From: Lumbricus rubellus
Taxonomy: Eukaryota > Annelida > Clitellata > Crassiclitellata > Lumbricidae
Direction of reading: 5' to 3'
Length of the DNA stretch: 64,000 nt
Assembly (NCBI GenBank): GCA_945859605.1
Contig: OX243814.1
Location: 38,819,377-38,883,376, forward strand
Below are positions 2,536 to 30,110 of this stretch, piece after piece (positions within the stretch are counted from its first letter, which is position 1; each line of letters opens with the position of its first letter). A program made the translations under genes and the position numbers. Below the pieces are notes generated by a model, which made no database searches, was not told the origin of the DNA, and saw only the letters and a program-made list of their open reading frames with translations.

Positions 2536-3500
2536 TCATTGGTTGTTAGTCTGCTGGTAGTTGGCATAGATAGCTGCAGAAGACGGTGTTATAAGTTCAT
2601 AAACTGTGTGAGGGATTAAATCGCGTTCGACAAGATGCATGTAGTCGTTTGAGTAGACTTGTTGTCTTAGTTCACTTGGTATTAAATACCCAGAAAATGG
2701 ATCGGAATGACGACGACGTCTGAATGAAGAATTACAGTGTTCGTAATCAATCAGATCAAGGTAATCGTGCGGACGAGATTGACTTCTTAATTCATTAGGC
2801 TGTAAATAATCGCGATTAGGCCTACATGTAGGCCTGCCTTGCGGATGAGTTGATTCGTCCACTAGACCTAGATAATCGTGTGCACGTGTCAGATGTTTGA
2901 ATTTATTTGGTACTAAATACCCAGATTCTGAATCAGTATCGGAAGGCCGAACTGAAGGATGAAAGGTATCAAAATCTACAAGATCCAGATAGTCGGGTCG
3001 GCGAGATTGAGCTCTTAGTTCGTTGGGCAACAAATACCCGGAGGCAGAATTTGGCTCTTGGGATCTGATTGGTGCACGTCGTCTAAAATTTCCAGACATA
3101 TCCAAATAAGGAGAATCATAGTTGGATTCGTTTGGTACCAAATACTGAGCAGTTGATCCAGGTTCCCGACTCAATGGTATGATCTCATAATTCACTCTGG
3201 TCTGCCTCTTGTTTCTTCCCGAAATAATTGCAGTGATGGTCGTTGAATTATTTGCTTGAACACTAGACAGTATGTTGGGCATCGATGATGTAAAACCTGG
3301 TTTTCTGTGACCGATTGGTCTTTTGTGTGCTGTTACAGGTTGCGGCCGAATGTTTTGATTCATAGTATTTAATATTGCATCCTGGGAATTACGTGCAAAT
3401 GTGACTTTCTTATGCGCTCTTTTAGCCCTTTTATTCTTCTCACGGTGATATGACTCTGCAACAATAACCTTTTTCATAGACTGCAAATTTACTATGTAGC
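2536..3500 (-). CDS. Gene 1 exon 6: cytoplasmic tail with five paired-tyrosine repeats
   Basis: 320 codons plus stop at 2538-2536. A basic, disordered-looking stretch comes first. Five repeats of 36-40 residues follow, each with a YL[V/L/Q/I]P[N/S] tyrosine and then a Y[L/M]x[L/M] tyrosine. Tyr positions in the assembled protein: 496/508, 532/547, 571/586, 608/623 and 648/663, then VYELI at 677. Known ligand preferences: Y-hydrophobic-x-P favours PLC-gamma, Crk or Shc-like SH2 domains; YLDM favours PI3K; YxxL/I resembles ITAM/ITIM halves. No catalytic domain is present. The acceptor is taken as TTTAG|GC because it keeps phase 1; TTGCAG at 3481 is nearer but would break the frame. Confidence 0.85.
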
Positions 3501-6500
3501 CTAAATGATAACTTTAGGCCTATATCAATGTCACTTTAAGACTATCACCAAGCTAATTTGTTTACCATTTAAAATTAGGACTGTTGATTAATCGTGATTA
3601 TCGCGTGCGATTTTAACGCGTTAAAACTTTGCGATTACATTTTTTAACGCATTAATCGCACGTGTTAGTTGGATCCGATAAAAATGGAATAAAAGGCAGA
3701 AAAAACCGTTTCAAACGGAAAGCTTGACCTTAAAACCAGCGATAGGCCTACTTTTTTCAAATAGTCCAAGAAAGAATTTAGGTGTTCCACTAAAGTTGTT
3801 TCAAACTAAAATTGGTTGAACTTCACATTATAAAAGATTTATATCCATTACAGTGGCGGAAAATACAGTAGGCTACACTTACGTGGGATGAATATCTAGT
3901 CCGGACTATGTTAGGTAGAAAATATTTAACATCCACGGCCACATACAGTTCTTTGTGAACCTTTGTTTTCTGTATTTTGTTATAGCCTATAATTATTGTC
4001 AATTAAAAGCAGCATCCTTTCAACCGACCAACGTAGGCTAAGTAAAACTGCAGACCTGCCTAAAGATCGAATTAGCCTACTGACTGAATAAAAAATCTGA
4101 TAGTTAGAAAAAAGAAAGTCTTATTTTCAGATTTATATCATATGAGAGTTGCTCAGACAAATAATTAGCGGACTTTCAGCAGCTGACTGATTTAAACAGC
4201 GTTTCAATTCTTTCTGCCATAAATTTTTTTGAAAAAATGGAGAAATGCAATGTGCAATTTTTGTGCATTAAGTACAATGGTTATTGAAACTGTCGTGTTA
4301 TAGAAAGTATGTATTCAGTAATCTATGGTTCAGGGGTCAATAGGAAAAAATATTAAGAATAATTTACTTGAAGGAAATGTGTTGCGATTAATTTGCAGTT
4401 AATTGTAAGCATAATTAAAAATTTTAATCGAGCGATTTATTTCTTTTAAATTTTTTAATCGAACAGCAACTCCATATAAAATGCCTACTCAAGCTGACGC
4501 CATAACTAGATGAACCGGTAGAATTGACCTGCATAGACCCATTCCTAGCATAAGGTTTAATTTAGTTAGTGAATTGAGAATTATTGCTATAAAGCAATGT
4601 TTAAATTTCGAATTGCAATCTGCTTAACTGAATGACAGATTAACTAAACATTATAATTGCCATTCACTCAGTCTATCTTTCCCTCAATACGGCGCAAACA
4701 AGATTACCCAGACTAATTTTTGATATATTTTATTGCTATGTAGAGCCTATACATTAGGATCATCCTATCAAGAATAGAACTTATTATGCTCGTTTCAAAC
4801 ACTTTCTATGTTTTTTCATAATAGGCCTACTGTAATCCTGGTGTGAGATCTGTGAAGTAAAAATTTGTTTTAATTGTGATACGAGTAACGACAAAACCTG
4901 TTAAAATTTACTTTTGACAGCTTGTTTAGCAGTGGATGAATGCTTACTTTCGAATCGAGCGTATGCGCAAACTCCAAAGGTAATTATCAAAACAGAAATG
5001 ACAAGGCTAGCCATTGCTACACAGACAATGATCAGTGCATTTCTCCATTCATCTGGAAAGAACATTGTATGGAGAGTTTTATTTGAGAAACGGGTGTCGA
5101 AATTTAGTAGGTCTATTAGGCCTACAGGCAGAGGCGTAGCGACCGCCCTTCGTACCCTCCGACCGAAGGGGGCCCCCGGCAAGGAAGGGGCCCCTAAAAG
5201 TGCCAAAAAATAAATGAAATGAATAATAATAAATAAAAAAAGGTCATCAAATTTTTTGGACGGCGAATATGAAATTTTCCCCAGGTTTTGGCCCAAAAAC
5301 GTCATCAACTTTTTTGGGCGGTGAATTGATGAAATTTTCCCGACATTTTGGCCGGATGACTAAAAAAGGTCGTCAGAAATTTCGGACATTATGCTCGGAG
5401 GGGCCACGTTTGTTCTTGCTACGGCCCTGCCTACAGGCTACGTCAAAGTTCAAGGGAACGCATGATTCATTTCTCAAGAGTACGAAACCAATAATCTTAC
5501 GATTGGTAGGCAGATACACTATAATTATAGTCAATACATGTGTATCTTAGTGCTATGTGCTTCTATCAGCAATCACTTTGTGTATTTTGTTCGTGAGATC
5601 TACATAGGCGTACAATGCCCGACACGATGTACGGCATTGAATGCCGTACATCGTGGCAGCCGCAGCAGTAGCGAACAACAACAATTGTAGTAAAACATTG
5701 TTTACATCACGATGCAAGTCCATAGTGTTGTAGTGATTTCATAAGCAAAAGAGAAGAGGAAAGACCACCCTGAATGAACAGGTTGAAAATTAAAACAGTG
5801 GCCTAATGGCATATCGACTGCAAGTCATGTCCATAAAGCATCTGCATATAAACCTCGAACCCTCCTTTTCTATGTCTTGCTACAAATGCAATACTTTGTC
5901 ATTAAAGATCACATAATTATGGTTCTTTAACATGTGCTACTCTATCAACTTGTTCAAACGATGTATAATTATGGCCTACATGTGGGCATAATTATAACTT
6001 ACCACTGGAAATAAAACTGCATGCCATGCGCTGCGGTGGGCGTCTAAACTCTGAGAGAAGGAAATGATTGTCTATTGAAGTTTCACTATTAGAAACTTGA
6101 CTTTCATTGTAGGCCTACTTTCATTTAGACCATTTTGTATTGATTTTTACTACTTTGGAAACGCGGAAATGATCATGTCGTCCATTCTCTTACCATTTGC
6201 GTCATTTAGGCCTACGGTTTCATTGTGTGGCGATTTTCTACTGAGACCACCTATATCAACAAAATAATACATTATTTGCTAAGCAGTAGGCCTATAATTA
6301 AATTCATCTTTAATATTAGCAATCGCTGAATAACAAGTTTTATCTTGCTCGGATTAAGACTAGCGCTCTACCTTGGTCACTGGAACTTCCAAGCATATGC
6401 ATATAGGCCTACATGTATAGATCTAAACCCACTTACAGTAAGTTAGCATAAAAAATTATAGGCCTAGGTCTATTTCTTGAATTTGACTCAACGTAGGCAT

Positions 6501-9500
6501 AAGATTTAGATTTAGAAACTATAGTTCATTGAAAGTAGCAACAGTTTAGCCTACAACAAAAACATTTTAAAATTTATAGAAAAGCGCTTCGAGCGCAAAA
6601 GCTCATGATGCAGATCATAAGTAGGCCTACACTATGTTTTATCCTTACCATAATGTGTACAATTTCCAATGACTCCCGTCCATTTTCCGTTTACGCAGAC
6701 GAGCTGCCATGAGTTGCTACTTTCATAGCAGCCAATAATAATTCTATCACCGTTTCGTTTAAGCCAACTGTCTTCCGGCGGAATAATATCTGAACAACCG
6801 AATGCTGTAAACAAGCATAGTTTATTAGGTTAAACATTTCATCGCTCTATTAGGCTAAGCTTAGGCTATAGGTAATTAGTGAATTATTACTTTGTGACTC
6901 TACCGTGTATCATTTGTATTCTTCACCAGTAGTCCATGACAATTCATGAGTCATGGATAAAAACTTAAAATGCAAAAGGCAAAATGTTGCTGGAATCGTA
7001 AAATATCAAGAAAGTTTTTGCTGACGGTCATTAAAGCAAGAAACGTTTTTGTATTTTGTTTTATAGAATACAATGAACTACCTTTCTAACTCTAATATTT
7101 ATCGTAATCGCGAATTCCACATTTTTGAAAGCGCTACCCTAAAGCAACATCTCTTTTTGTCGTATCTCTAGCAACGCATAATACTCTTGATTTCAAACAG
7201 CCACACGACAATGATAAACCTATCTTCTGAGCACAACTAAACTAGAGTGCAGTAATAATGTTATGATTTAAATGTTTCCGCAGAACCACTTCGATATTCG
7301 GTGTCAATCTCACGATAAACATCCGTTTTTGGGAAGATTAGTTTACAACAATTTAAGCAGCGCAAGAATGAACGATGACCCTCCATAAACATAGCAGCTG
7401 TCAATTCCATTTATATGCGGTAAAGTAAACTAGAAGGACAAAATTATGGACCAAATGATACGTGGGTTTAAATGGTGATGTCATTCAATTTACATAAATA
7501 CAACAGGTTGACAACTTGCGACAATTTCTTCTATAAGCTTATATTTTTGCGCTTGAGTCGAAAAGCTATGAAGGAATTCGTTGTGGCACCTGTAAATTGA
7601 CTCATGACGCAATTGTCTTTGTTCGTTAACCGTCATTACATTTATTATACACACACTATAGGCCTAGCCGCTGCCTACTTGGTTCTCTTATAGGGCCTAT
7701 GAAGGTGTTGTTTCAGCCAAACCAGTTGAAAGTGATTGTCCGTCTAAGCTCTCACACAGAAAATAGCTAGTCAAAATATGTAGCTCGTATTCGAATACTA
7801 AGAATGTTAACGTAAGTATATGTCTAATGAATCAGCGTTGGATAGCTTAAGATTGCCATAATTTATATCGTGCTTGATCGTTTTTATCCATGCTATAATT
7901 CGAATGCAAACTTTGGGGTGAAGCACTTAGATAATACTGTCTGATAATTATCACAGCGTTGTAGCCCACAAATTTTGAATAGGTCTAGAATAAATCATAA
8001 TACGTGCCCACCTTTCAGTTTCAGAATTGACACGTTTGGATAGTTACTGCTGTTCCTCTCGAAGTTGGAAAATAGTATTATGTTTAAAACATTTCCAGCT
8101 GATTTATACAGGGCTATTTCTCTTTGAAATTCATTTGCACAAAGTGAGATATTTCGTTTTCCTGTTTCATCAATAATTGTGCCATACTTCTGACAGTTCA
8201 TCCCTTGAGTTTGTCTATCAGCTGGATGTCTTGCAACAAAGCTAAGTAAAGTTAAGGCAATCTTTTGACCAACAGGTGCTTCAACGCGCCAAGGCTGATG
8301 TTTTGTTCCACATATTCTTTGGCTAAGGGATGAAAGTATTATGTGAATCGGATTTGCATTTGCAGTTACTACACATGACCTTTCCTCATCTACAACTGAA
8401 CACCACAAAGACATTCAATCATTAGAGCCGACGTTTATATTGACAAATAAATGCTTACAACGATCGTTTTATATGTAGCCTATTAAGCCTATGCGCAATA
8501 ATAATAATAATTATATAAAATATCGCTAATAAAAATGACTAGCAAAGATGTTTCGCAAATTTCACGTCTTATAATTATTGCACTCTACATGATAGTCCAT
8601 CGCATATAGACGTTTATACATTTCAACATCCGTTTTTACCTCTTGCAAAGTAGGTCTAAATAACAATCATATAATATTATTTGACTGTTGGCACCACAGC
8701 TAGCAATCTTTTATAACAAGTAGGTCTACTTATTCAACCATTGCTGCAGGTAGCCTATTAATGTCAGCTTGATTCAGGGATTCGGAATTGGTCCAGCCAC
8801 GTATGACATCAATGCTTCTGATCTCCAACAGGTCCACAAAGTGTGCAGATGACACATAGGCTACTTGCGGTCGGAGATGAGGGCAACCGTTACGGAGGAG
8901 CTAAAATATAGATCTAGGCCTATAGTTTATTATTTTAGCAGCTAAAAGCAACCTTCGACTGAACGCTGAAAAGTCAAGTGAAAATGGACATCTCCTGTCG
9001 TCAGTTGTGTAGGACTGTTACAGTACCGGTAATTCGGAGTGTAGGTGCGCCAGAGTACCCTAAATGGAGGAAGTGACAACAGTAGCATCTATTAGCATGC
9101 TTGGAGTAACCATAGGCGCAACCACCCTATGGGACCCACGGGACGCGTCCCCCCAACTTTTGAGTGGTCCCCTAACTTTATTATTATGGTCCCCCCAACT
9201 TTTAGGACGTGATTCATTATGGTCCCTCCAACTTTTAGGACGTGATTGCACCTATGGGAGTAACCCTTAGCTCTTATCTTCGAGTCACCTTTCACGCAGA
9301 CAACGGAGTTTCCTCATGTGTCCTTCCCTGGGAAAAATCGGTTAGACGATTTTCGAAAGATATCAGAGTATTTTAGCTGCCTCTATTTTACATACCAGCA
9401 TCAAATAGGCCTAGATTGATTTTTGCAATCGATGACGTCAAGATAAAGGTCATTAAATCTGATTAGATAGCTTTTTATAGCAATTATACGGAGCAGTCGT

Positions 9501-12500
9501 ACCAGAAATGCAGCTATAACTGACTTCAAGGAATAGGCTTAGGCCCGGAAAACAAGGCTGGATATTTTCATCCGAAATGTCATGGAGACGAAATTCGCAT
9601 TCATTTTTGCCGGAGCATTTCCGATCCAATATATTCAAGACATCAGCTGAACAGCCAAGATAGCGTGGATCCTCTCCAACAGGTGGTCCAAGTGCAGCAA
9701 TTTCCTCAGCTGTTATGCATCGGCCAATGCGCATTCGTCCATAGACAGCGTGTTCCATGAGAATAACTTCATTTTTAAGGCATCGAGGCTGAAACGTCTC
9801 GAAGAGACAATAATCCTGTGCTGAAGCTATTACCTCTGCTGAAACTATTACATACAATCATTTCCGACATAAAAATTTATTGGCAGAAAATGTGTCAAGC
9901 TCATAAATCTAACGAGAATATTACTGAAATACTTGTTGTAAATACGAAATAAGCTTATCTTTCATTTAACTGTTACACTTTTTCATAATTAGCCATAAAA
10001 TCAGACGCAGCAGGGCCTACGATGCACATTGTCTAAGACTCTAAGTCGTTATAATTTTTTGAGTTTGCATTGTACGGCTTCGAGAAAGTGCATAAGCTAG
10101 AATTCAAGGAATGGCTTCGCAATAGAAGCGTATCTTAATCTCATCTTTGTTAGCCTTATTTTCGTCCCTCCACCTTCTCCAAATTAAATAACAAAAAATT
10201 TCAAAAAAAATCAGTCCAAATTTCATACGACACTACTTGAATACGAAGTACATTAAATGTACATTAAATTTATAGTTTTAAATGTTGCATCAGAGGAAAT
10301 ATTCCCCTGATGCAACATTTAAAACTATTAGGCTAAGACGCAAACAATTTCAAGGCTATAGTACTCTTGAAAAACAGACTGTAATTTGAATCTGTCTGAC
10401 ACTACCATGCTAATCATCTTGACATGTAGTATTAGAGTGGTCCAAAAAAATAATCTTGCAGATTTCAGTTCTCCACAAGGCTTGTTTTTGTCCTTATCAT
10501 GATTATAACAATCACAAAAAATTTCAATGAAAACAAATGAAATTTAGAGGTCAACCCATTTGACACTTTTTATGTTATTGGGACAGAAGTAGATACATTG
10601 TTCCGCAATGGTTAATGTACGACCTGAGCGACATTGAGTCTGGGGAGATTCCATTTCTCAATTACTTCAACACTGGTGTTGGCCTGAGAGTCACCTTGTA
10701 TGTCGCTCACCATTTTTGGTATTGCCAAACAGTTTTTCCTGGCAATTTCCAGTGAGAACTATAATAATAGCTATAGATGAGGTTCATGTTTGCCTTTAAT
10801 CCGTCGATGCTGCATGGGCAACATTTTGATTTCTCAGAGAGGTAATAGCAGGTCTGCCAGTGTGCACTCTTGTTCTTTCATTGCAGCTGCTTCTTGTCTT
10901 TCTTTTATGAACTTCTAGAATATGTGATTTCTGAAATTAATGTCATAACCAACTCCATCTACGAACACAGTATGACGGTCTGGAAGGCCAACACGATACA
11001 AAGCACCAACAACTAAACTAAAGAAGATGTTCTTGGATCTTTCTTGATAATGAGGCAGACTTTAGTAGCAGCTGCTTATACATTGTAGAGTGTAGACATT
11101 ATGTACTCGAACGATGACTAGGTTGTCTTTAAATCGAACAGTAGGCTAAGCTTATTCTTCTTCTGAATCCTGACTAGATGACAAAGCTGCTTCATTACTG
11201 CCTTTTGTCTTGCGTTCTTCATATCAATTTTCACCATTCTCTTGTCGTTGCCTTTTTCTGCTCTCTTTTGCTGCTGTCTTTAGGTCTACTCCACTCATGC
11301 TACTGGAAAATACGTCTTTTTGCATTCGAAGGAATTCTTCTTCTTGCTGGATTTCTGTCATCATATCCTTTGAGGCAATATCAAACAATTTTTGAAGGTC
11401 ACTCTTTAACATGTATTCTTTATCTTGTCACTTGCTCTTTATAATGGTCTGTGAGTCTTCAGAGTTAGGTAGTTCTGATAAAGCTTTGACAGTTTCCTGA
11501 CACACCGGAAAACCAGCTGTGTTGGTATTCTGGCAAGCACCCAAATAGAAACAACTGCTTCACAGGCCATTTTTTAACTTTCCGGATTGGGCCTCCCTTT
11601 AGTGATATGATGAAACTGAAGCAGTTGCTGTGCATCCAGGCTTGTGGTAATCTTACAGTAGATAACCGAGTGACTGGTTTTCCCAATAGCCAGTACTCTG
11701 GGTCTGATCTCAGATTAGACAAAGCCATATTAGTCTACAATTGATGGTTAACATGACGTAAAGACATTATCAGCACTCAAGTAAAATGTTCAGAATGGGT
11801 TGACCTCTAAACGTTGCACAATCAGGCTGAAATTTTACAGGAAGACTATCTAACCCAAGTGGACAAATATAAGCCTTGTGGAGAAAGAATTCTAAAAACT
11901 TAATTTTTTGCCATTGTATCGTGGACCAGTCTAATGTATTATGTAATATGTCTTGCAAAGTGCATTACATTGTACAAGACTTTCATATGCAGGTCAGCGG
12001 TCGCAGTGAATTCAGAATTTTTATCACGGCTCTAGTGTAATAATACGTCGCTCAAAAATGCTAAAGCGTGCTGTGGTGCAATTACCACTGAGGAAAGCTA
12101 GGCTACTGAAGCCTACCCGACAATTAAATTCGCAGGCCGATTTTTTATGGCTAGAGAAATGCAAGCAAAGTAGGCCTATTAAAAATATTTTGCTAATATA
12201 GGGCCTAGTCAACCTAACAGGTAGGCATGATAGGCCCATAGAAGTAACAGATGTTAACAAGGTTGACGTGGCGCATTTATCCTCTTGTTCATTTTTACAG
12301 TCAACCCTACGGAGTTGAAGGCTGAATTGACCTTAAGAGACCAGCATGTCTAGGACCAGCGTCCTTCTGGTCTTCGTGCCAGCGTGTTGCCATTCAGCCA
12401 TCTGCTCAAAACCCGTCAGTTTGCTCATTGCCTTTGGGTAAGACTAAGACGTAGCTTGCACTAGTCTGTAGACCCACTGGAATTAGCTCAACAGGATTTT

Positions 12501-12963
12501 TAATTTATGTTGATTTACATATTACAAACACTGAAAATAAATATCAAATGTTGAAGTTGACCAAAATTTCCATGCTCCACAAATTTAAAATCATAGACTC
12601 AAAACAAACTCTTTTCTATGCAGGAAGCTAGCGCGGTCATTTATGCAGAGCAAGTAAGGCCAATTCTCGTGCATCCATTTTTAGGTCTAGCTTAGAAGTT
12701 TATGATATTATGAATATTTTATAGTTTGCATTTGTAATATCTGAATAAGATCCAAGTTGCAGTAATCTCGGTCCTATGAAACCAGTGCTGAATAATTTTT
12801 CACGGCTGGGGTTCAAATTTGAACATAGAAAGTGTCGAAGTTTAAGATAAGCTTATCCTCTCCAAGCTTTTACATCAACTCTGAACTAATTATTTTTATA
12901 CATCATGTTATAGTGCTTACCGTAACCAAATGGCAGCATTAAAATGACAAAATACACGTCCAT
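2536..12963 (-). CDS. Gene 1: SUEL lectin-CUB-sushi transmembrane receptor with repeated tyrosine tail (6 exons, 697 aa)
   Basis: I assemble six exons: 12963-12921, 9838-9503 (or from 9820), 8395-8012 (or from 8389), 6804-6649, 5121-4912 and 3500-2536. All introns are GT-AG and phase 1, and the joined frame is open for 697 residues. Domain order: signal peptide (1-21), SUEL/rhamnose-binding lectin (about 22-126), CUB (about 127-254), sushi/CCP (255-306), transmembrane helix (about 335-359), and a tail of about 338 residues with repeated YLxP/DYLxL tyrosine motifs. SUEL domains bind rhamnose or galactose, and CUB and CCP are extracellular interaction modules. The tail looks like a multivalent SH2-docking platform. 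I infer a cell-surface carbohydrate-sensing receptor that signals through recruited kinases or adaptors. I know no named family with this order. An AATAAA cluster on minus near 1869-1884 could end the transcript. The least certain parts are the last intron's acceptor and the choice between tandem acceptors. Confidence 0.85.
3578..4470. mobile_element. Probable DNA transposon remnant with TTAATCG termini
   Basis: The left end GACTGTTGATTAATCG and the right end TTTTTTAATCGAACAGC are imperfect inverted copies, and both ends are full of TTAATCG words. It lies in intron 5 of gene 1. No target duplication could be settled and no open transposase was seen. Confidence 0.4.
4912..5121 (-). CDS. Gene 1 exon 5: membrane-proximal linker and transmembrane helix
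   Basis: A 28-residue linker with one N-glycosylation sequon (NKT) is followed by a hydrophobic helix of about 25 residues from NALIIVCV to FGVCA, then a basic stop-transfer stretch. The donor GTAAAT is in phase 1. The likeliest acceptor (CTGTAG|GC) lies inside the 8-bp target duplication of a hAT MITE (5129-5429). A second in-frame acceptor (AATAG|AC) would start the exon at 5112. The intron just upstream of this exon therefore ends in transposon sequence. Confidence 0.8.
5129..5429. mobile_element. hAT-type MITE at the acceptor of gene 1 exon 5
   Basis: TIRs CAGAGGCGTAGC and GCTACGGCCCTG with a perfect 8-bp target duplication CCTACAGG (5121-5128 and 5430-5437). The inner part repeats AAAAAGGTCATCAA-like units shared with 34074-34405, 38151-38457 and 55798-56146. 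The left duplication copy contains the splice acceptor. Confidence 0.8.
5623..5655. repeat. Perfect 33-bp inverted repeat
   Basis: Two 16-bp arms (CACGATGTACGGCATT and its complement) separated by one base, in intron 4 of gene 1. Confidence 0.9.
6649..6804 (-). CDS. Gene 1 exon 4: sushi/CCP domain
   Basis: 52 codons, phase 1 at both ends. Four cysteines (FGCSD, IIGCYE, LVCVNG, GNCTH) and the C-x-x-G-x-W motif (VCVNGKWTG) fit one short sushi/complement control module. The acceptor TTTACAG and donor GTAAGG are strong. Confidence 0.85.
8012..8395 (-). CDS. Gene 1 exon 3: CUB domain
   Basis: 128 codons, phase 1 at both ends. The pattern fits a CUB domain: RSC near the start, RICG, then WRVEAPVGQKIALTLLSF (the W-x-I-x-AP-GQ-I-L core), a second cysteine pair (MNCQKYG and SLCANE), and YKSAGNVLNIILFSNF, the S-GN-L-I-F strand near the end. 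CUB domains mediate protein or carbohydrate contacts. Two acceptors six bases apart (exon starting at 8395 or 8389) are both in frame. Confidence 0.85.
9111..9256. mobile_element. hAT-type MITE, CATAGGCGCAA family (copy 1)
   Basis: TIRs CATAGGCGCAA/TTGCACCTATG and a perfect 8-bp target duplication GGAGTAAC. The body repeats CCAACTTTTAGGACGTGATT. It lies in intron 2 of gene 1, about 250 bp from the lectin exon, and is nearly identical to 29128-29278. Confidence 0.85.
9503..9838 (-). CDS. Gene 1 exon 2: SUEL-type (rhamnose/galactose-binding) lectin domain
   Basis: About 105 residues with eight cysteines, the usual number for SUEL domains. Family signatures are visible: AVYGR (the YGR motif), CSADVLNIL, CSGKNECEF, QPC in place of the common DPC motif, and the closing LFLEVSYSC. 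The same fold occurs in sea-urchin egg lectin, fish rhamnose-binding lectins, EVA1C and latrophilins. Two in-frame acceptors 18 nt apart (exon starting at 9838 or 9820) would add or remove six residues around the signal cleavage site. The donor is at 9502-9501. Confidence 0.9.
10272..10328. repeat. Long perfect hairpin (22-bp arms, 13-base loop)
   Basis: ATAGTTTTAAATGTTGCATC and its complement face each other with arms of 22 bp. The loop can extend the stem with GGAA/TTCC after one mismatch. It lies in intron 1 of gene 1. It could be a small foldback element or a precursor-like hairpin. Confidence 0.85.
10560..11960 (-). pseudogene. Decayed transposon-associated open reading frame
   Basis: On minus, pieces from three broken frames follow each other: ...WSTIQWQKIKFLEFFLHKAY (11770-11958), EYWLLGKPVTRLSTVRLP (11465-11728) and LFDIASKDMMTEIQQEEEF (11224-11412), with stops and frameshifts between. 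From memory these resemble an uncharacterised repetitive protein common in invertebrate genomes; I cannot confirm the family. It sits in intron 1 of gene 1. Confidence 0.4.
12921..12963 (-). CDS. Gene 1 exon 1: start codon and signal peptide
   Basis: The ATG is at 12963-12961 (minus) and opens MDVYFVILMLPFGY, a short hydrophobic run. It is followed directly by a strong donor (GTAAGC) in phase 1, as the lectin exon needs. After splicing, the sequence reads on to A-x-A just before the mature QDYC, a good signal peptidase site. It lies about 3.1 kb from the next exon. The exon was chosen because it is the only nearby one with a hydrophobic N-terminus and a matching phase. Confidence 0.7.
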
Positions 12964-20174: not shown

Positions 20175-20539
20175 TTAGTTATCTCTGTGCTTTAGGGTCT
20201 CGTAGACTTTGTTCTTCGCCAGTGCATCCGACGATTCCAAATAATCGTTGAGATGCCTGGAACAGTCAGACGCTGGTTGATCAGAGGTTTCTGGTTCGAA
20301 ATCCAGGTACACGACATTCTGGGCGGTGGCTGCCTGTGCGTCAGGTATTTCATCGTAATCGACAGATGGTGGTCGTGGTCTGGGTGACAGATAATCAGTG
20401 TAGTCGAAGGGCGGATGCTTCACGGTTGGCAGAGGTAGGCTGAGGTTATGACGGGCGGCGCGGCTCAACGGGGTCTTGGTATTCACCGCGTCGAATGCAC
20501 CTCCAGTTGCTATCGGAAACGCTCTAGAGTTGCCCCACC
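20175..20539 (-). CDS. Gene 2 cytoplasmic tail exon with tyrosine and proline motifs
   Basis: 120 residues and a stop at 20177-20175. Motifs in order: FDYTDYLSP, PRPRPP (possible SH3 ligand), DYDEIP, VYLDFEP, NDYLESS and VYETL eight residues before the end. YLSP and YLDF resemble the YLxP and YLDL motifs of gene 1's tail, and VYETL matches the position and shape of gene 1's VYELI. The acceptor TTGCCAG|GG is in phase 1. A tail on a single exon is as in gene 1. Confidence 0.8.
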
Positions 20540-23500
20540 CTGGCAACCGTTTTTAAAACAAAAACAAAGTTGATATAAGCACATCCATAATATCACTCTT
20601 TAATATAAACTCCGCCACTGGTTTGCACTCTGCCAGTGCCAGTCCCAAGCCTGGAATAAGGAGGAGGGTTTGCCAGATGTGTGTCGATACTCTCTCAGTA
20701 AAAACGAAAAACACGAATTAAACTTGATAATATCACTGTAATCTATTATAGGTAAGCTTATATAAAATAATAGACTATAAAATGTCTGAAACGAGGCAAA
20801 ACAAATTCCCACACTTCGCAACAGGAATGCAGCGTAACTTAATGTATTTAGTACGAGTTAAAATTAATGTAAGTTTTAAGTTTTTAGCAAAACAGGTAAA
20901 ATTCGTATGACCGATTCATACAAAAAGATTCCATCGACAAGGCTTTGATTTGCACGCGAAACGATAAGAAGACATTTAGAAAAACTTTCTTTCGCAGCGA
21001 ATGCAGTTATTTGCTGTCTATTACAAATGTCTGGAAATGCATTAAGTAGCCTATTGTTTAGAAAATAAATTCTCATCATGTCAAGGTCTAAAAGAAACTC
21101 AAGACCAATAATTATTGCAATGGCTGAACCAAACCTGAGTCTATAAAAAAACTCTATAAGCTTATAGTAGCTTACTTGAAATACTAAAAAAAATGTGAAA
21201 AATCCATTATGTCAATCGTCATCAAGAATGTTTTGCAACCTGTTGTAGGCCTACATGTAGACTCTGTTTTAGTTAATTTAAATTCAATCATTCTTTTCTG
21301 AAAATTCTTTAAAATGGCAAATTACACTATTTACCAACGAAGATTCATAGTTTAGGATACTTTAGAGCATACTTTTAAGATGACGCACATTTTAAATCTG
21401 ACCATAAGTAGGCCTAGTCTAGGAGTCGAATATAGACCTAGGCCATAGGCTATGTAACGTCCAAAGCGTTGAGATTATTTTCTTCTTGACGCACGCTCAT
21501 CCATTTTCTAAGCAATTATAGACCTACTTAGGGCTAGAACGTTTCCAGAAGCCTAACAACCTAAGCTTCCATAATCATTACAGGCCATATTCACTTTCAG
21601 GTCTCATATCCAGGAACGGTGGATTGTATTTTCAAGAACAGGAAGCTGAATTCAATCTGTTGTTTATAATTTGACTAGTCGGGATATCAATGTTAGACAA
21701 TTGTTTTCTAGGTTTTAATCAAATTTTTAACATAATTTTATGCCGATAATTGCACTTTAAGTGCTTCGAGTAGCCTAGGTCTAAGTGCAATTTCATAGCT
21801 TTTCCAATGCAAATTACAGTTTTATTTTCACTTGCAGCTGACAACAATAAGCGATTGTTGAATGCAACCTAAGAAGCTGGCCTTTATATCTGTAGCCTAG
21901 GCTACTTGGAAATTGCATTTTATTCTGCTAATCGCTCCGCGCCTAATACGAAACAATGTTAAAACACTCATAATTGCAGTTCTACCAAAAAGTTACTGGT
22001 CTCTGCTCACACAGGAAATTTCCTTGTTTATTGAATTCGCGATAATATAAGCTTACAAGAAACAGGAACTTTCCAATGTGAGCAATTATTACAATTCGTA
22101 CAAATGGCCAAAACAGACAGTAGACAAAATTAGTGTGCTTACTTTTTCTTTTGGTCACTGCGATGTACACGCTCAAGCTCGCAATGATCACAGCCGAAAC
22201 AGCAAGTGTCACAATGAGCAGGATTTTCAGAATTCTAGAATCACTGTTCGTGCATCTCTCTGTATTGAGCAAAATAATAACAAAAATCTGATGACATTAT
22301 TAATTTGCCCCTTTAAAGACATTCTTACTTAAACAATCTCCAAAATGGATTTTTGTGACTCATTTAATAAATCTAATATTATTTATGAAGGTAGAAACAA
22401 TACAGATATTTACAGGGTGGCGCAGAAAAAACCGGACTATTAGTTTTCTGTCAATATCATGGCCAGAAGTAAGAACATCAAAATGAAATTTTACAGGCTT
22501 AAAGACAATTCATATTTACACATGAAGGCCAGATTTCATCAAAATATTTCAACCAAAACACAAGTTATGTCACTTTTATTGAGGCCACCCACCGTTTTTG
22601 ACGTTTCAAAAAAGAAACGCTCCAAAAATTAGGTTTTTTGTCAATATAATGGCCAGAAGTACGAATTGCTAAATGAAATTTTACAGGCTTAAAGACAATT
22701 CATATTTACACACGAAGGCCAGATTTCATCAAAATATTTCAACCACAACCCAAGTTATACCACTTTTAGTGAGGCCACCCACCGTTTTTCACGATTCAAA
22801 CACGAAACGCACCAAAAAGTAACAAAAACATGATTAATTTTTTTTATTAAGTCTTATCTCAAATAACTGTTGTCAAATGAACTTGGTAGTGCTTCACAAC
22901 TTGTGTTCAATGTGCCCACCTCCAGTGCCAAAACTTCTTTTGAGTCTTTTTGCAAAGTTCTTGATGGACCTCTGATTAATCTGACAGATTCCTTATTTAC
23001 CAATTTCATTGTCATCTTGCTAAGTGACTTCTCAGTGACGTGCAGCTACTTTTTGCTGCGTTGCGTCATTGAATCGTCAAAAACCGGTGGAAGTGGCCTC
23101 ACTAAAAGTAATATAACTTTTGTTCTGTTTGAAATATTTTGATGAAATCTGGCCATCATGTGTAGATATGAATTGTCTTTAAACGTGTGAAATTTCATTT
23201 TGATATTCTTACTTTTGGTCAAGATATCGACAAAAATCTCAGGGGTGGGTTTAATCAACAGGTCCATCAAGAACTTTGCAAAGAGACTCAAAAGAAGTTT
23301 TGGCACTGGTGGTAGGCACATTGAACACAAGTTGTGAAGCACTACCAAGTTCATTTGACAACAGTTATTTGAGATGAGACTTAATGAAATCATGTTTTTG
23401 TTACTTTTTGTTGCGTTTCGTGTTTGAATTCTTAAAAACCGGTGGGTGGCCTCACTAAAAGTGGTATAACTTGTGTTGTGGTTAAAATATTTTGATGAAA

Positions 23501-26500
23501 TCTGGCCTTCATGTGTAAATATGAATTGTCTTTTAGCCTGTGAAATTTCATTTAGATGTTCTTACTTCTGGCCATGATATTGACAGAAAACTAATAGCCC
23601 GGTTTTTTCTGCGCCACCCTGTACTTATGCCCATCAGTCGACCCTGTAACTGAATAGTCATGTTCATTTAGGATTATCCCTTTGACAAGAAATACTTTTG
23701 CTGACTATTGTACATCTATTACACTGGACAACAGTGATTTTGCTACCTGGACACTTTTATGTGTTTCTTATGCAGTTTCTGCTGCTGATCACGAAAATCA
23801 CCTTGAAATTGTCCCATCACGTAAGGTTTTTGAGAAATCGTCAAATTTTCGTTACGTTTTGGAATCGTAAAAAACCAGTGGTTTTAGGCATTAGGCATCC
23901 ATAAAAGTGGTATAACTTTTGTTCTGTTTGAAATATTTTGATGAAATTTGGCCATCTGGTGTAAATATGAATTGTCTTTAAGCTTGTAAAATTTCATGTC
24001 GAAATTCTTACTTTTGGCCAAGATATTGGCCAAAACCCTAAGGGTCCCCCCTTTTTTGCTCATCCCGTACATTGTACATGTGCAACTAAACAAGAAATAA
24101 CTGTAAAACATTAATTTCATGTTTTTCAACTTTTCTAAGTGATACAGTCATCATCAGCATCAATATTATGAGGAAGAACTGTTATAAAGATTTGTTTTCC
24201 AATGAAACTAAATTATAGTATATTGTAAATGTGTACAATATAATGTGAGCGTGTAAGTTAAAATATTGCATGCTGTTTTTTCAAAAACCTTACGTGATAC
24301 AACAATTCTGAGCACACCATCGTGTTCAGCACGTCACATTCTATAGAAAATAGTGAAAGATTTTCCGGAAATAACAAAAATTAAGTTATAGTATATATTG
24401 TAAATTATATGCAAAAAATGAGCATTTAAGTTAAAATCTTACATGCTGTTTTCTCAAAAACCTTACGTGATACAATAATTCTGAGTATACCATCGTGTTC
24501 AGCACGTCAAATTCTATAGAAAACAGTGAAAGATTTTCCGGAAATAAAAAAAAATTAAGTTATAGCATATTGTAAATTATATGCAATAAAGTGAATAAAC
24601 GAGCATTTAAGTTAGAATCTTGCATACTGTTTTTCTCAAAAACCTTACGTGATACAACAATTCTGAGCATACCATCGTGTTCAGCACGTCAAATTCTATA
24701 GAAAACCATCAAAGATCTTTTGGAAATTAAAAAAATTAAGTTATAGCATATTGTAAATTATATGCAATAAAGTGAATAAACGAGCATTTAAGTTAGAATC
24801 TTGCATACTGTTTTTCTCAAAATTCTTACGTGATACAATAATTCTAAGCATACCATCGTGTTCAGCACGTCAAATTCTATAGAAAACCATCAAAGATCTT
24901 TTGGAAATGAAAAAAATTAAATTATAGCATATTGTAAATTATATGCAATAAACGAGCATTTAAGTTAGAATCTTGCATACTGGTTTTCTCAAAAACCTTA
25001 CGTGATACAACAATTCTGAGCATACCATCGTGTTCAGCACGTCAAATTCTATAGAAAACCATCCAAGATCTTTTGGAAGTAAAAAAAATTAAATTATAGT
25101 ATATAGTAAATTATGCAATATATGAGCATTTAAGTTAAAATCTTGCATACTGTTTTTCTCAAAAACCTTACGTGATACAAAAATTCTGAGCACACCATCG
25201 TGTTCAGCACGTCAAATTCTATAGAAAACCGTCAAAGATTTTTCGGTAGCAAAAAAAAAGTTAAAATTTGTTGTCCAGTGTTATAGGCTAATCATTCACA
25301 ATGTGACCAACCACAAGACTATAGGCCTATCCTTTTCTTTTAATCAGCTTTGTCATTCTTATGTTGTAGTTTCAAGTATTCTCCTCTTTACACTTCCATT
25401 TTTTAATCGTTACTGTTAATATCAGACTGGAATTATAGTAATTCCAGTCATTACGGACATTTATATGGCGCCCCTTCAAGGTTACTACTCAGGAGCGCGC
25501 CCGACCCAACCTCGACTGAAAGAATAGTTTTAGCTTTTAGGGCTGCTATAAATAAATAAATAAGTGCATCTGTATAAACCCTAGGCATAAAGCGAAGTCA
25601 ATTGGAGCCCGTTTAAATTTTCATACCATGGGGCCAACAACAGAGTTGATGCAAAGGCAAGCTCCTGGTTTGATTGCACTGCCTCAGTCTATTATAATAT
25701 TATTAATACGTAGACCATTAATTTTATAGGCTACATCAACTATTTTCGCACATTCTGAAAAAATCTGACCAAAAATAACAGTAAGTAAGTTACTACTGAC
25801 GTTTAACTGCGAATCCTATTTGGATTTCCTGCTTCTGATTCGTCGTAGGATTTGTCGCCCTGCACATGAACTTGTATGGTTGATCTCGAGTCATCGAATC
25901 GACGATGGTGAGTGTGGGACCAACTGTAACATCGTTCGACTCCATGTTCAACCAGACAATTGATGGATTTGGATTTCCCACGGCCATACAAGTGAGACGG
26001 TCGTCCGGATAGAAGACATCGCCCGCTGGAACCACACTCAGATTACGAGGTCCATCTGAACAGAATGCAAAGCAGAGTACTCAGTACTAATAGTCGGCAT
26101 TTCTTTCCAATATTGCTTCATTCGCATGCTATTGAGGTGAGCGTTGTTTTCAAAACACCTTCATAAGAACGTTCTTACTTATGCCCGCTCATTCACCCCG
26201 TCATTAATTGCCTCCCTCATTCATTCACTGACTAACTGACTGACAGGCTGGATGGCTGGCTGACTGATTGATTGACTGGCTGGCTGACTGATTGACTGGC
26301 TGAGTGAGTGAGTGAGTGACTGACTGACCGACTGACTAACAGACTGACTGACTGACTGACTGACTGACTGACTGACTGACTGACTGACTGACTGACTGAC
26401 TGACTGACTGACTGACTGACTGACTGACTGACTGACTCTCACCCTCTCATCCACTTGCTCACTAATTCTATCACTTTAATTGCTCACTGGCCTACGCACT

Positions 26501-29500
26501 CACTCTCAATATTACTCACTCATTCATTCACCTATTAACTTGCATAAAACTGCTAATGAGAACTTGAATTATGAATGGGCGCTACATAAGTTTCCTAGAT
26601 AGATAAGGATTAGCAGCGTTACTGACAAACAGACATACAGACTAAACGACATGTCGTCTGAAAGACAAACAGGATAAAAGCAGACGGAGAGACAAATAGA
26701 CGGACAAACTAACACACAGACAAACAGAGAGACAAACAGGAATGCAAAGAAAAGGCCTGACAACAAGGAAGTTCCATAATTATATAGAGTCTACTGTGCC
26801 AGAAATGGGCGAAATAAAATGCAGCAAAATTATGTATAATTTCCCGCTAATCTCCGAACAATAATTATGTTTTAAGCTAGACCTTTGACCACTCCCAAGA
26901 GTTATCAGGATGCAGTACACGGACTCACAAGGCAATCAGCAACATTTGTAGACTGTGGGAGTGTGAGCAGGCCTATTAGGTCTACAGGGTGCGCCAAAAA
27001 AAAGTAATCCCCTACGGTTTTTTGCCCATATCTTGGCCAAAAATATTAATTTTTAAATGACATTTAACAGTCTTAAAGGCAATTCATATTTACGTACAAT
27101 GGTTCAAATTTCATCAAAATATTTCAAACGGAACAAAAGTTATGCCACTTTTAGGGAGGCCAAACACCGTTTTCTGACGATTGAAAAACGAAACGCAACA
27201 AAAACTAGGTTTTCCCCCAATATCTTGGCCAAAAGTAAGAATTTAGATATGAAATTTTACAGGCGTAAGGACAATTCATATTTGCACATGATGGCCAGAT
27301 TTCATTAAAATATTTCGAGCACAACAAAAGTTATACCACTTTTAGTGAGGCCACCCCCAATTTTTGACGATTCAAAGACGTAACGCAGCGAAAAGTAACA
27401 AAAACACGATTTTATTAAGTCTCATCTCAAATAATAATAATAAGAAGTGTTGGCATTGGTGGTGGGCTCATTGAACACACCTTGTGAAGCACAACCATGT
27501 TCATTTGACAACAGTTATTTGAGATGAGACAATAAAATCACGTTTTATTACTTTTTGTTGCGTTACGTTTTTGAATCGTCAAAAAACGGTGGATGGCCTC
27601 TCTCAAAGAGGCATAACTTTTGTTCCGGATGGAATATTCTGATGAAATTTGGCCATCATGTGTCAATATGAATTGTCCTAAAGCCTGTAAAGTTTCATTT
27701 CGAAATTCTTACTTCGGGCCAAGATATTGGTAAAAAACCTCGTTTTTGTTGCGTTTCGTTTTTGAATCGCCAAAAAACGGTGGGTGACCTCCCTAAAAGT
27801 AGCATAACTTTTGTTCTGTTTGAAGTATTTTGCTGAAATTTGACCATTGTACGTAATTTTGAATTGCCTTTAAGACTGTAAAGTTTCATTTTAAAATTCG
27901 TATGTTTGGCCAAGATATGGGCAAAACACCGTAGGGGATTACTTTTTTTTGGCGCACGCTGTACATAATAAAGTTACCCGAAGTGCATAATATTATTTAT
28001 CCATGAAGTGCTAATGCAAAATTATTGCCAGAGCAATAATTGTCCTCCCAACATTTTTCCTCCGTTTCCGGATATCACGCTTTCCCATTTCAAAGTCTGC
28101 AACTGTAGCCTAGGCCTTTTGCTGTTCTCTGATCTATGTGCATAAGTAGTGGCGCCTATTCAAAGCTCAAAAACGATCCTCAGCAGTAGGCCTACCATTA
28201 ATGGCTAACTTCTCAGTAATTATAATAATAATAATTACGACAAATTAAATAAATGAGTTATATTTCTTTAGCTGAACTCAGGGCTGGCACTGAAAAAAAC
28301 TGACACTTATTATTAGGAGCAATTATATAGCACCCCTTCAAGACTATCTACTCGAAGTGCTCCCGACCGAATTAGTTGGATTAATACACAATATTTGTAC
28401 ACAAAAAATCGCCTAATTTGGTAGATATTGTGTAAAACATTCTGTAAAAGTAAAATTTGTTAGAAACATAGTCGTTGAGTCAGTTAGGGTCTATAACTCT
28501 ATACTCTACCTGTAATAATTATAATACCGTAGTGAGCAAATGTAGGATAGGCTACAGTGATTGCCGAACATACCCAACAAAGCTGTGCAATAAAAAGCCA
28601 TGCTCAATATGAATAGGCCTACTGCCGATAATTATGATCTAATTATAAAGTAACAGAAGGCATTGATTAAACACTAATGAAAATGAACCTCAGCTTACAA
28701 ATAACTTCGACATAAGACGACTTCCACGTGTAGTTATAATTCGGAATGTTGTCAGCGACTTTGGGATTGGACACCGTTGAAGAAACGTTGAAGACTGTTT
28801 CACAGATGAAGCGACATCCATGCAGAGACGAATCAGCAACGATAGAGAACTTTGACATCCCGTCTGTCTGTGGGGACACACTCAACGTACGTTCCTTAGA
28901 TTTATCGTTCCCGTTTGCCAGACTCCATCTCATGACTGGAACCAGGGATCCAGTGTAGCTTAAGATGCATTCGATTTCGAATGCACCGTTTTCCTGTTGT
29001 GTGGAACGGCTTCTCATCTCGCACACAGGGTTTGAAGCTGTTAAAACAATTATGATTAATTACATTTAAGTCGACTGATGCAAGAACCTTATTGACAAAA
29101 TTATATTTGAGCTGCTTAGGCTACAATCATAGGCGCAACCACCCTATGGGACCCACGGGACGCGTCCCCTCCAACTTTTGAGTGGCCCCCTAACTTTATT
29201 ATTATGGTCCCTTCCAACTTTTAGGACGTGATTCATTATGGTCCCCCCCCCAACTTTTAAGACGTGATTGCACCTATGGCTACAATGTAACTGCTAGTAT
29301 TGTCGATGTGTTGTTATTTTATCTGGTTTAGTATTCTTAGTTGTTTGCAGATTGCAGAATATTCTCTAATAGAAAGACAACCTTTTCTTAACTTGTCCAC
29401 AATATCCACGGTATTTAACTAAGCGCTCATAGGCCTACTAACTTTACTAAGTCTTCATTCATTGATTCGTTCGTTCCTAGAGCCTATATAGCGCCTCTTG

Positions 29501-30110
29501 AAGAGACTTACTCAGAGGCGTTCCCAGACCTGCAACAGCTACAAAAGTAAGATTTGATCTAATTGTAAAGGCAGAGGAGTTTAACCTAGGCAATAGGCAT
29601 CAATCGCAAGGCTAACGCGAGGCCAATCCAGGTGTCTCTACCAAGTTTACCAAAACGTGTTAAGATTAAGAATCGACTCGTATAATAGGCCATCGTGCAT
29701 GGGCTTGTTTTTCAAAGCTATATGACATCCTCAAGACTCATAAGTTGTACGACTAACCAACTTACCAAGAACGACTAGTTGCGCTGATGCACTTTCCATT
29801 GTCACCGAGCCATTTCTGTCCCGCACCATCTGAGTACAGGTATAGAGCCCAGCGTGTTGCTTCTGCGCGGACGGAACCATCAACCTCTGTCCTATGATGT
29901 CACCGTTCAGAGTGGTCCCGTTGAAGATGGCATTGACTATTCGATATTCATCGTTGATTGGCTGCTCCGTTGAACTTCCTCCCAGCGGTGTATGATACCA
30001 TTCGATGGGATGCTCAGATGAATTGCTGCTTTCCCAGCGGCAGTTCATCACAAAGGACTCACCGGTTCGTACAGCCATATTCAAAGGACGATGCAGTATT
30101 GCAGCCGATG
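20175..30110 (-). CDS. Gene 2: three-Ig transmembrane receptor with tyrosine-rich tail (5 exons seen, 5' end uncertain)
   Basis: Exons 30110-29766 (Ig V), 29037-28699 (Ig), 26055-25801 (Ig C2), 22259-22143 (transmembrane) and 20539-20175 (tail, stop) join in frame through phase-1 GT-AG introns, giving about 473 residues without the signal peptide. The signal exon is not settled; a weak candidate is at 32765-32729. Architecture and exon order match genes 3 and 4, but the tail is different and carries tyrosine motifs. I infer a cell-surface receptor whose tail recruits SH2 proteins, in the manner of leukocyte inhibitory or activating Ig receptors. The introns hold a foldback mariner (22413-23621), a satellite array (24195-25262), a second foldback (26985-27961) and a MITE (29128-29278). 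Whether the gene is inhibitory cannot be read from the sequence. Confidence 0.8.
20606..20680 (+). repeat. Unclassified interspersed repeat (copy b)
   Basis: Second copy of the repeat with the core at 20635-20654, in the intron between the transmembrane and tail exons of gene 2 and antisense to it. Confidence 0.55.
22143..22259 (-). CDS. Gene 2 transmembrane exon
   Basis: 39 codons: a short stalk (RCTNSDS), a hydrophobic helix from ILKILLIVTLAV to SVYIAV, then the basic anchor TKRK. Phase 1 at both ends; donor GTAAGC. No charged residue lies inside the helix that would suggest pairing with an adaptor chain. Confidence 0.82.
22413..23621. mobile_element. Foldback mariner-derived element A
   Basis: Ends CAGGGTGGCGCAGAAAAAAC and its complement, flanked by TA on both sides. 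The two halves are inverted copies. Each half holds, reading inward, two tandem copies of a unit of about 190 bp and then a remnant of a transposase C-terminus (NRSIKNFAKRLKRSFGTGG on plus near 23250). It lies in the intron between the transmembrane and Ig 3 exons of gene 2. Confidence 0.8.
23700..24071. mobile_element. Half copy of the foldback mariner family fused to an inverted satellite piece
   Basis: 23850-24071 matches the right half of elements A-C and ends in CATCCCGTA. 23715-23845 is a diverged inverted copy of the satellite edge at 25140-25280 (CATCACGTAAGGTTTTTGAG; ACACTGGACAACA). Confidence 0.55.
24195..25262. repeat. Satellite array, about 170-182 bp period, six copies
   Basis: The marker CCTTACGTGATACAA occurs at about 24288, 24461, 24643, 24824 (one variant), 24996 and 25166. 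Each unit also carries CATCGTGTTCAGCACGTCA. Copy spacings of 173, 182, 181, 172 and 170 bp reflect small indels in an AT-rich linker. Confidence 0.9.
25801..26055 (-). CDS. Gene 2 Ig domain 3 (C2-type)
   Basis: 85 codons, phase 1 at both ends. RLTCMAVGNPNPSIVWL is a classic C2/I-set B-to-C segment, and YKFMCRATNP supplies the strand F cysteine. The acceptor is TCTGTTCAG|AT and the donor GTCAGT is weak but phase-correct. Confidence 0.82.
26337..26436. repeat. (GACT)n microsatellite
   Basis: About 25 near-perfect GACT units within a longer degenerate tract (26220-26440). It lies in the intron between Ig 3 and Ig 2 of gene 2. Confidence 0.95.
26985..27961. mobile_element. Foldback mariner-derived element B
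   Basis: Ends CAGGGTGCGCCAAAAAAAAG and complement, flanked by TA. Inner units and the transposase remnant are as in A, shorter in the centre. In the gene 2 intron between Ig 3 and Ig 2. Confidence 0.8.
28699..29037 (-). CDS. Gene 2 Ig domain 2
   Basis: 113 codons, phase 1 at both ends. EIECILSY supplies the strand B cysteine, MRWSLANG the core Trp and GCRFICE the strand F cysteine; there is an extra N-terminal cysteine (NPVCEM). The spacing resembles the second Ig domains of genes 3 and 4 (LSCDLSY, LEWL, FTCRVRY), which supports common ancestry. Confidence 0.8.
29128..29278. mobile_element. hAT-type MITE, CATAGGCGCAA family (copy 2)
   Basis: Same TIRs and body as 9111-9256 and a perfect 8-bp target duplication GCTACAAT. 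In the gene 2 intron between Ig 2 and Ig 1, 90 bp from the Ig 2 exon. Confidence 0.85.
29484..29545 (-). repeat. LINE/SINE 3' tail fragment
   Basis: ATAGCGCCTCTTGAAGAGAC and CTCAGAGGCGTTCCC on plus are the inverted form of the tail at 48245-48348. Confidence 0.45.
29766..30110 (-). CDS. Gene 2 Ig domain 1 (V-type)
   Basis: 115 codons, phase 1 at both ends. V-like signatures: FVMNCRW (strand B cysteine), PIEWYH (the core Trp), then HAGLYTC (strand F cysteine) and AQLVVLG at the end. N-glycosylation sequons include NSS, NGT and NGS. The acceptor is GATTTAG|CA and the donor is GTAAGT. Confidence 0.85.

What the first reader, a model, noticed from the sequence alone, without database searches (positions are those of the whole stretch)
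2590..3144. Five tandem YLxP ... DYLxL modules with a fixed 15-residue tyrosine spacing
In four of five repeats the first tyrosine (YLxP-N/S) and the second (DYLxL or DYMxL) are exactly 15 residues apart; the first repeat has 12. Repeat length varies (36-40), so the spacing inside the module is held while linkers drift. This is unlike the 10-12 spacing of ITAMs and suggests a selected two-site ligand for a tandem-SH2 protein or a pair of adaptors. It may be a new immunoreceptor-type tyrosine motif.
Basis: partly seen in the sequence, partly recalled or inferred. Interest (0 to 1): 0.87.

Follow-up and report, generated by a model that had tools for sequence, protein, structure and literature searches.

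The report
Lectin-like receptor with tyrosine-repeat tail
The repeats form the predicted cell-inside tail of a predicted surface receptor; their five pairs of tyrosine sites also occur in the only related tail found, so they are likely docking points for signalling proteins, but the distance between the two tyrosines of a pair differs between the two tails and does not look like a fixed code.

Summary
The modules are real and lie on the minus strand (3144-2590). They sit in the last exon of a predicted six-exon gene (12963-2536) for a 659-residue single-pass receptor: signal peptide, SUEL-type lectin domain, CUB-like and CCP-like domains, one transmembrane segment and a tail of about 305 residues. 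YLxP-to-YLxL spacings are 12, 15, 15, 15, 15, as reported. The only related tail found (P0002, 53% identical) has 12, 10, 15, 16, 15, while keeping all ten module tyrosines and 14 of 15 aligned tyrosines. Linkers are no looser than modules (24, 24, 22, 25 against 24, 24, 23, 24). So the tyrosine sites look conserved, the 15-residue spacing does not, and no ITAM pattern is present. The tail matches nothing else in its own genome, yet the ectodomain has a large paralogue array: 76 lectin-exon matches within 1.3 Mb of another contig. Of 20 stretches sampled there, 14 gave a recognisable short tail, 13 with one YxxL near its start, none with the modules. Best reading: a multivalent phosphotyrosine scaffold receptor that works like DCBLD1/2 or p130Cas, not a new tandem-SH2 spacing code. 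Phosphorylation and binding partners are inferred.

The parts
12921..12963 (-). predicted exon 1: start codon and signal peptide (MDVYFVILMLPFGY)
   Evidence: GT donor, phase 1; signal peptide judged by eye, no 21-residue window there exceeds hydropathy 1.6
9503..9838 (-). predicted exon 2: SUEL-type (galactose/rhamnose-binding) lectin domain
   Evidence: Pfam PF02140 E 2.6e-07, 31.4 bits at the cut-off of 31.4 for the exon's open frame; splice sites
8012..8395 (-). predicted exon 3: CUB-like domain (label by eye)
   Evidence: aligns to P0003 and to cluster paralogues; no Pfam match
6649..6804 (-). predicted exon 4: CCP/sushi-like domain (label by eye: four cysteines, WTGVIGNC)
   Evidence: conserved in P0003 and in 18 of 20 cluster stretches; Pfam gives only a sub-threshold Bubble hit
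4912..5052 (-). predicted exon 5: transmembrane segment (an alternative donor would end it at 4948)
   Evidence: both donors phase 1; hydropathy peak 2.9
2536..3455 (-). predicted exon 6: cytoplasmic tail with all five modules and the stop codon
   Evidence: open frame; single match in its genome at E <= 0.001
3097..3144 (-). module 1 YLVPN...YLDM, spacing 12 (12 in P0002)
2980..3036 (-). module 2 YLLPN...DYLDL, spacing 15 (10 in P0002)
2863..2919 (-). module 3 YLVPN...DYLGL, spacing 15 (15 in P0002)
2752..2808 (-). module 4 YLQPN...DYLDL, spacing 15 (16 in P0002)
2632..2688 (-). module 5 YLIPS...DYMHL, spacing 15 (15 in P0002)
2698..2718 (-). RRRHSDP, fits the 14-3-3 mode-1 pattern RxxSxP; identical in P0002
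   Evidence: meaning of the pattern recalled; a second match in the window tail (RSQSRP) is absent from P0002
3397..3411 (-). KKVTF, fits the RVxF phosphatase-1 docking pattern; conservation unknown (not covered by P0002)
   Evidence: meaning of the pattern recalled

Best explanation
A predicted single-pass receptor with a lectin-type ectodomain carries in its tail five repeats of two tyrosine motifs (YLxP and a YLxL type, mostly DYLxL), which are likely phosphorylated when the receptor clusters and would then act as a multivalent docking scaffold for SH2 proteins rather than as a 15-residue tandem-SH2 code. Shown by sequence: the motifs, their recurrence in one related tail, the change of spacing, the borderline lectin-domain match and the single occurrence of the tail in its genome. 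Predicted: splicing, membrane topology, ligand binding by the SUEL domain. Inferred from known specificities (YxxP from the papers named below, YLxL from recall): YLxP sites would recruit Crk/CrkL-type adaptors, DYLxL sites would recruit PLC-gamma-type or other YxxL-binding SH2 proteins, and kinases of the Src and Abl families would do the phosphorylation. The even spacing is best explained by tandem duplication of a module, possibly with later homogenisation (modules 2 and 4 are 73% identical to each other but 59% and 65% to their counterparts).
For: Five pairs, far beyond shuffles. P0002 keeps all ten module tyrosines and both motif types; motif cores 41 of 49 columns identical, inside-module spacers 19 of 38, linkers 39 of 74. 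Spacing changes of -5 and +1 in two of five modules. Silent sites between repeats near saturation (pS 0.74 and 0.86) with pN 0.14 and 0.23 (biased, because the codons were picked by motif). Receptor anatomy: SUEL, one strongly hydrophobic segment, introns all phase 1 in the model, same order in P0003, and SUEL-CUB-CCP in order in 18 of 20 cluster stretches. Precedent: the DCBLD2 tail has seven YxxP motifs needed for CrkL-SH2 binding, and their number is kept between mammals and zebrafish while tail identity falls to about 40% (PMC6029619, abstract and passages); YxxP recognition by Crk SH2 and transmembrane proteins with YxxP repeats go back to choanoflagellates (PMC5043372, abstract and passages).
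Against: No phosphorylation, expression or binding data. Only one related tail (P0002, an unnamed contig; orthologue or paralogue unknown) was found. The second motif also fits the YxxPhi sorting signal. SH2 specificity was not computed, and the SH2 repertoire of the genome could not be searched. The splice model has no transcript support; its only outside support is the resemblance of P0003. The lectin match is at or below its cut-off and the signal peptide is by eye.
Confidence: 0.62

Rival explanations
1. A true bivalent code: each YLxP-DYLxL pair is one ligand for a tandem-SH2 protein (PLC-gamma, SHP2-like or Syk-like), with 15 residues as the favoured distance.
For: Four of five modules have 15 in the window, and modules 3 and 5 keep 15 in P0002. 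Tandem-SH2 proteins do show spacing limits: shortening the linker of a bisphosphorylated peptide lowers SHP-2 activation (PMC7078208, passages).
Against: Modules 2 and 4 become 10 and 16 in P0002 and module 1 has 12 in both; linkers are at least as constant. Several known docking arrays have about 20 residues between SH2-binding sites (PMC9333988, passages), which the 22-25 residue linkers resemble as much.
Confidence: 0.15
2. The second motifs are mainly YxxPhi endocytosis or sorting signals for clathrin adaptors, and the tail controls receptor trafficking.
For: All five second motifs fit YxxPhi in both tails.
Against: The YLxP half does not fit, yet all five recur in P0002. The first module lies about 121 residues from the membrane, farther than usual for such signals (recalled).
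Confidence: 0.15
3. The repeats are a by-product of internal duplication in a disordered tail, with little function for each single module.
For: Modules 2 and 4 resemble each other more than their counterparts, as in recent duplication or homogenisation.
Against: Tyrosines are kept in 14 of 15 aligned places against 59% overall identity; silent sites between modules are near saturation while motif residues persist (biased by choice of codons).
Confidence: 0.08

Closest known systems
DCBLD1/DCBLD2 scaffolding receptors
   Same: Single-pass receptor; CUB domain outside (here CUB-like, by eye); tail with many YxxP sites that stay while the rest drifts (PMC6029619, abstract and passages).
   Different: Here a SUEL lectin and CCP-like domain instead of LCCL and discoidin domains; each YLxP alternates with a YLxL-type site; no direct sequence comparison with DCBLD proteins was made.
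p130Cas/BCAR1 substrate domain and choanoflagellate YxxP transmembrane proteins
   Same: Tandem YxxP array, Crk-type docking (PMC5043372, abstract and passages).
   Different: Cas has an SH3 domain and is cytosolic (latter recalled); the choanoflagellate peptides tested in the passages read are pYDVP, not YLxP; no second alternating motif is mentioned in them.
ITAM receptors
   Same: Paired tyrosine motifs, second of YxxL type.
   Different: First site is YxxP; spacing 10-16 between tyrosines; no ITAM pattern in either tail.
SUEL-lectin transmembrane proteins (P0003; the C3 paralogue cluster)
   Same: Same ectodomain order: SUEL, CUB-like, CCP-like, then a hydrophobic segment.
   Different: Their tails lack the modules: P0003 has no YxxP; of 14 recognised cluster tails 13 have one YxxL near the start, 12 a YSV[FY], 3 a YNTP, none a YLxP or YLxL module.

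Membership tests
ITAM receptors | YxxL/I x6-8 YxxL/I | tested here: not met
   0 matches in the window tail and 0 in P0002
ITIM/ITSM receptors | [SIVL]xYxx[ILV] or TxYxx[VI] in the tail | tested here: inconclusive
   window: one ITIM-like VNYEII and one ITSM-like TVYELI, both outside the modules; P0002: three ITIM-like (VNYEVI, VDYNPI, VDYPTL), no ITSM-like
DCBLD family | CUB, LCCL and discoidin domains | tested here: not met
   Pfam scan of the 659-residue model gives only SUEL_Lectin and a sub-threshold Bubble hit
DCBLD family | several intracellular YxxP motifs | tested here: met
   6 YxxP in the window tail, 6 in P0002; intracellular side is predicted
SUEL-type lectin domain proteins | Pfam PF02140 at its cut-off | tested here: inconclusive
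   exon's open frame 31.4 bits against a cut-off of 31.4; full model 27.3, below it; relative P0003 36.0, above it
SUEL-type lectin domain proteins | binds galactose or rhamnose | not testable with these tools
   needs a binding assay
Crk/CrkL docking scaffolds | phospho-YxxP sites bind the Crk SH2 domain | not testable with these tools
   motif present; binding untested
CUB and CCP domain proteins | Pfam CUB / Sushi match | tested here: not met
   no such family at E up to 10; labels rest on cysteine pattern and appearance; the structure model of P0003 was too poor to help (mean pLDDT 41)

The most novel reading that the evidence does not exclude
This long-tailed receptor, whose tail is single-copy, is the signalling hub of a large lectin-receptor recognition system: 76 or more short-tailed relatives in a 1.3 Mb array vary the CUB-like domain and signal through one membrane-near YxxL, while the hub, co-clustered by the same ligands, adds a ten-site two-motif phosphotyrosine platform, an invertebrate counterpart of paired long- and short-tailed immune receptors.
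Probability: 0.15. Interest if true: 0.78.

Novelty: new variant of a known kind. Interest (0 to 1): 0.5.

Why it matters
It replaces an attractive but poorly supported spacing code with a testable one: recurring, alternating YLxP and YLxL-type sites on a lectin-type receptor. If the sites recruit Crk and PLC-gamma, one receptor would link surface sugar recognition to the cytoskeleton and to calcium release.

Tried and rejected
Rejected: ITAM or new fixed-spacing immunoreceptor motif; coding on the plus strand; DNA-level tandem repeat (none at the tool's threshold). Led nowhere: PDB sequence searches with the CUB-CCP stretch and with the modules (0 hits); structure model of P0003 (mean pLDDT 41), so no fold search was made; the third protein search found no further tail (its new hit P0004 is a fragment that looks nearly identical to the CUB-like domain of P0003); the tree of the window, 18 cluster rows and P0003 leaves the place of the window gene unresolved. 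The SH2 repertoire of the genome (PF00017) and a genome-wide search with a short cluster tail did not complete. Three of ten paper searches gave nothing. The species and phylum of the window were not determined; 'animal' and 'invertebrate' are inferred from gene structure and content, and a guess of echinoderm is an impression only.

Rows dropped: one search left out matches under 80% of the domain and one lectin exon with a stop (L028), and used only pairs with dS 0.05-0.8. L023 and L028 of the 20 stretches showed only a lectin exon. The window's own transmembrane and tail exons had no match at E up to 1 in the 20 stretches. Of the 14 tails, that of L022 is weak (E 0.16) and that of L025 has no YxxL. 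In one search any stop would have been read as X in the script.

Full report
WHAT IS THERE. The finding is correct in its raw form but lies on the minus strand. Window 2590-3144 minus translates into an open 185-residue stretch; the plus strand does not. It belongs to a 325-residue open frame, 3513-2536. Regular splice sites, every intron in phase 1, join it in a predicted model to five upstream exons: signal peptide (12963-12921, by eye), SUEL lectin (9838-9503), CUB-like (8395-8012), CCP-like (6804-6649), transmembrane (5052-4912, or to 4948 with an alternative donor), tail (3455-2536). The product is 659 residues. The only Pfam name is SUEL_Lectin (31.4 bits for the exon's open frame, exactly the cut-off; 27.3 bits in the full model, below it). 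CUB-like and CCP-like are labels by eye; Pfam gives neither.

HOW REGULAR. Tyrosine-to-tyrosine spacing inside modules is 12, 15, 15, 15, 15; between modules 24, 24, 22, 25. No shuffle of 200,000 reached the motif numbers. The repeats are not visible as DNA repeats, and silent sites between modules are near saturation (pS 0.74 and 0.86) while replacement differences are low (pN 0.14 and 0.23). That last comparison is biased, since the codons were chosen because they spell the motif.

A search of 5.8 billion predicted proteins with the tail gave one relative, P0002 (269 residues, 53% identity, E 9.8e-69); two further searches gave no other tail. P0002 keeps five YLxP and five YLxL-type motifs. 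Its spacings are 12, 10, 15, 16, 15 inside and 24, 24, 23, 24 between. Of the 15 window tyrosines in the aligned part, 14 are kept (of P0002's 19, also 14), against 147 identical of 249 ungapped columns. Motif cores are identical in 41 of 49 columns, spacers inside modules in 19 of 38, linkers in 39 of 74. So tyrosines and motif cores are kept, the 15-residue distance is not in two of five modules, and linkers are if anything steadier in length (mean deviation 0.50 against 1.20, both tails pooled). Modules 2 and 4 are 73% identical to each other but 59% and 65% to their counterparts in P0002, while modules 3 and 5 match their counterparts best (73% and 77%); this fits duplication or homogenisation as the source of equal lengths. 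One comparison is a thin basis; whether P0002 is an orthologue or a paralogue from another species is not known.

OTHER TAIL FEATURES. RRRHSDP next to module 5 is identical in P0002 and fits RxxSxP (14-3-3 mode 1, pattern recalled); a second match, RSQSRP, is in the window only. TSSMPNILS is also identical. KKVTF near the membrane fits the RVxF pattern (recalled) but is outside P0002. One ITIM-like and one ITSM-like site lie outside the modules; of the two only the ITIM-like one (VNYE[I/V]I) still fits in P0002.

THE FAMILY. A search with the whole protein found P0003 (512 residues, 35% identity over 49%), with the same ectodomain order and a tail (152 residues as I cut it) without any YxxP. 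In the own genome (787 Mb, 368 contigs) the tail matches only itself at E up to 0.001 (8 candidates scored), but the ectodomain gives 121 matches, a lower bound because 115 of 608 candidates were scored. Of the 121, 3 are the window gene, 76 are lectin-exon places on contig C3 between 40.37 and 41.65 Mb, 71 of these without a stop inside, and 42 are other C3 places, nearly all in the CUB-like part (recounted). I read 20 stretches of that array: 18 of 20 hold SUEL, CUB-like and CCP-like exons in order. Searched with two cluster transmembrane pieces and two cluster tails, 17 of 20 gave a transmembrane exon and 14 of 20 a short tail (two of the 14 are the sources of the tail queries, and L022 is weak at E 0.16). 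Of the 14 tails 13 have exactly one YxxL, near the start, 12 have YSV[FY], 3 have a YNTP, and none has a YLxP or YLxL module. Tails were not recognised in L026, L034 and L036, which have the transmembrane exon, so other tail types may exist. Among sampled paralogues median dN/dS is 0.20 for the lectin (14 pairs), 0.37 for CUB-like (10 pairs), 0.08 for CCP-like (23 pairs); no used pair exceeds 1; mean pairwise identity is 63%, 50% and 76%. So there is constraint, least in the CUB-like domain, and no sign of whole-domain positive selection. The tree does not place the window gene.

MECHANISM. The anatomy is that of a surface receptor whose tail offers ten tyrosines of two kinds. YxxP is the Crk/CrkL SH2 consensus; DCBLD2 binds CrkL through seven such sites phosphorylated by Fyn and Abl, and keeps their number while the tail drifts (PMC6029619, abstract and passages). 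The Crk preference is older than animals (PMC5043372, abstract and passages). YLDL-type sites are known for PLC-gamma and other YxxL-binding SH2 domains (recalled; my searches for a paper on this found none). Src-family kinases and PLC-gamma act at sea star egg activation (PMC11593052, abstract and passages), which shows such a pathway in one marine invertebrate but does not link it to this gene. Shown here: sequence, recurrence, spacing change, single occurrence of the tail. Inferred: phosphorylation, partners, ligand, cell type.

KNOWN OR NEW. It works like the multi-YxxP scaffolds (DCBLD, Cas) but is not a DCBLD (domains not met) and not an ITAM receptor (pattern not met). The alternation of YLxP and YLxL-type sites on a SUEL receptor was not seen in my paper searches (open-access full text only; I read the listings and passages of five papers, and the word YLxP occurs in none of the 12 papers listed), so 'new variant of a known kind' is the fair label. 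The array of SUEL-CUB-CCP receptors was likewise not seen in those listings, which is weak evidence of novelty.

Noticed in passing
G000:C3:40.37-41.65 Mb (L004-L041): 76 lectin-exon matches (lower bound) of the same SUEL-CUB-CCP-transmembrane family in one 1.3 Mb array; 14 of 20 sampled stretches gave a short tail, typically with DYKTLN-type YxxL near its start and YSV[FY] later.
   Followed up: partly
window 29734-30183, 28670-29059, 25796-26080, 21985-22296, 20178-20552, minus strand: Neighbouring receptor-like gene with two frames that match Ig models below the curated cut-offs, a third frame between them with no Pfam match, a hydrophobic segment and a tail frame carrying DYLSP, VDYDEIP, VVYLDF and KVYETL (grouping by eye).
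   Followed up: partly
window 44853-47935 and 58632-61943, plus strand: Two similar Ig-type receptor genes in tandem (matching frames LLQSPE.TEA..., YPS.E.CTT..., MSYGGCD/LSYGGCD..., and a hydrophobic frame each, by eye, no Pfam run).
   Followed up: no
window 23046-24147, 27057-27973, 35019-35903: Repeated open-frame fragments (SYATFREATHRFL...RNATK type), one of which also resembles a frame in cluster stretch L024: a dispersed repeat (by eye).
   Followed up: no
window 2698-2718, minus strand: RRRHSDP, a 14-3-3 / basic-kinase type site (recalled), identical in P0002; DCBLD2 is also reported to bind 14-3-3 (PMC8015000, search listing only).
   Followed up: no
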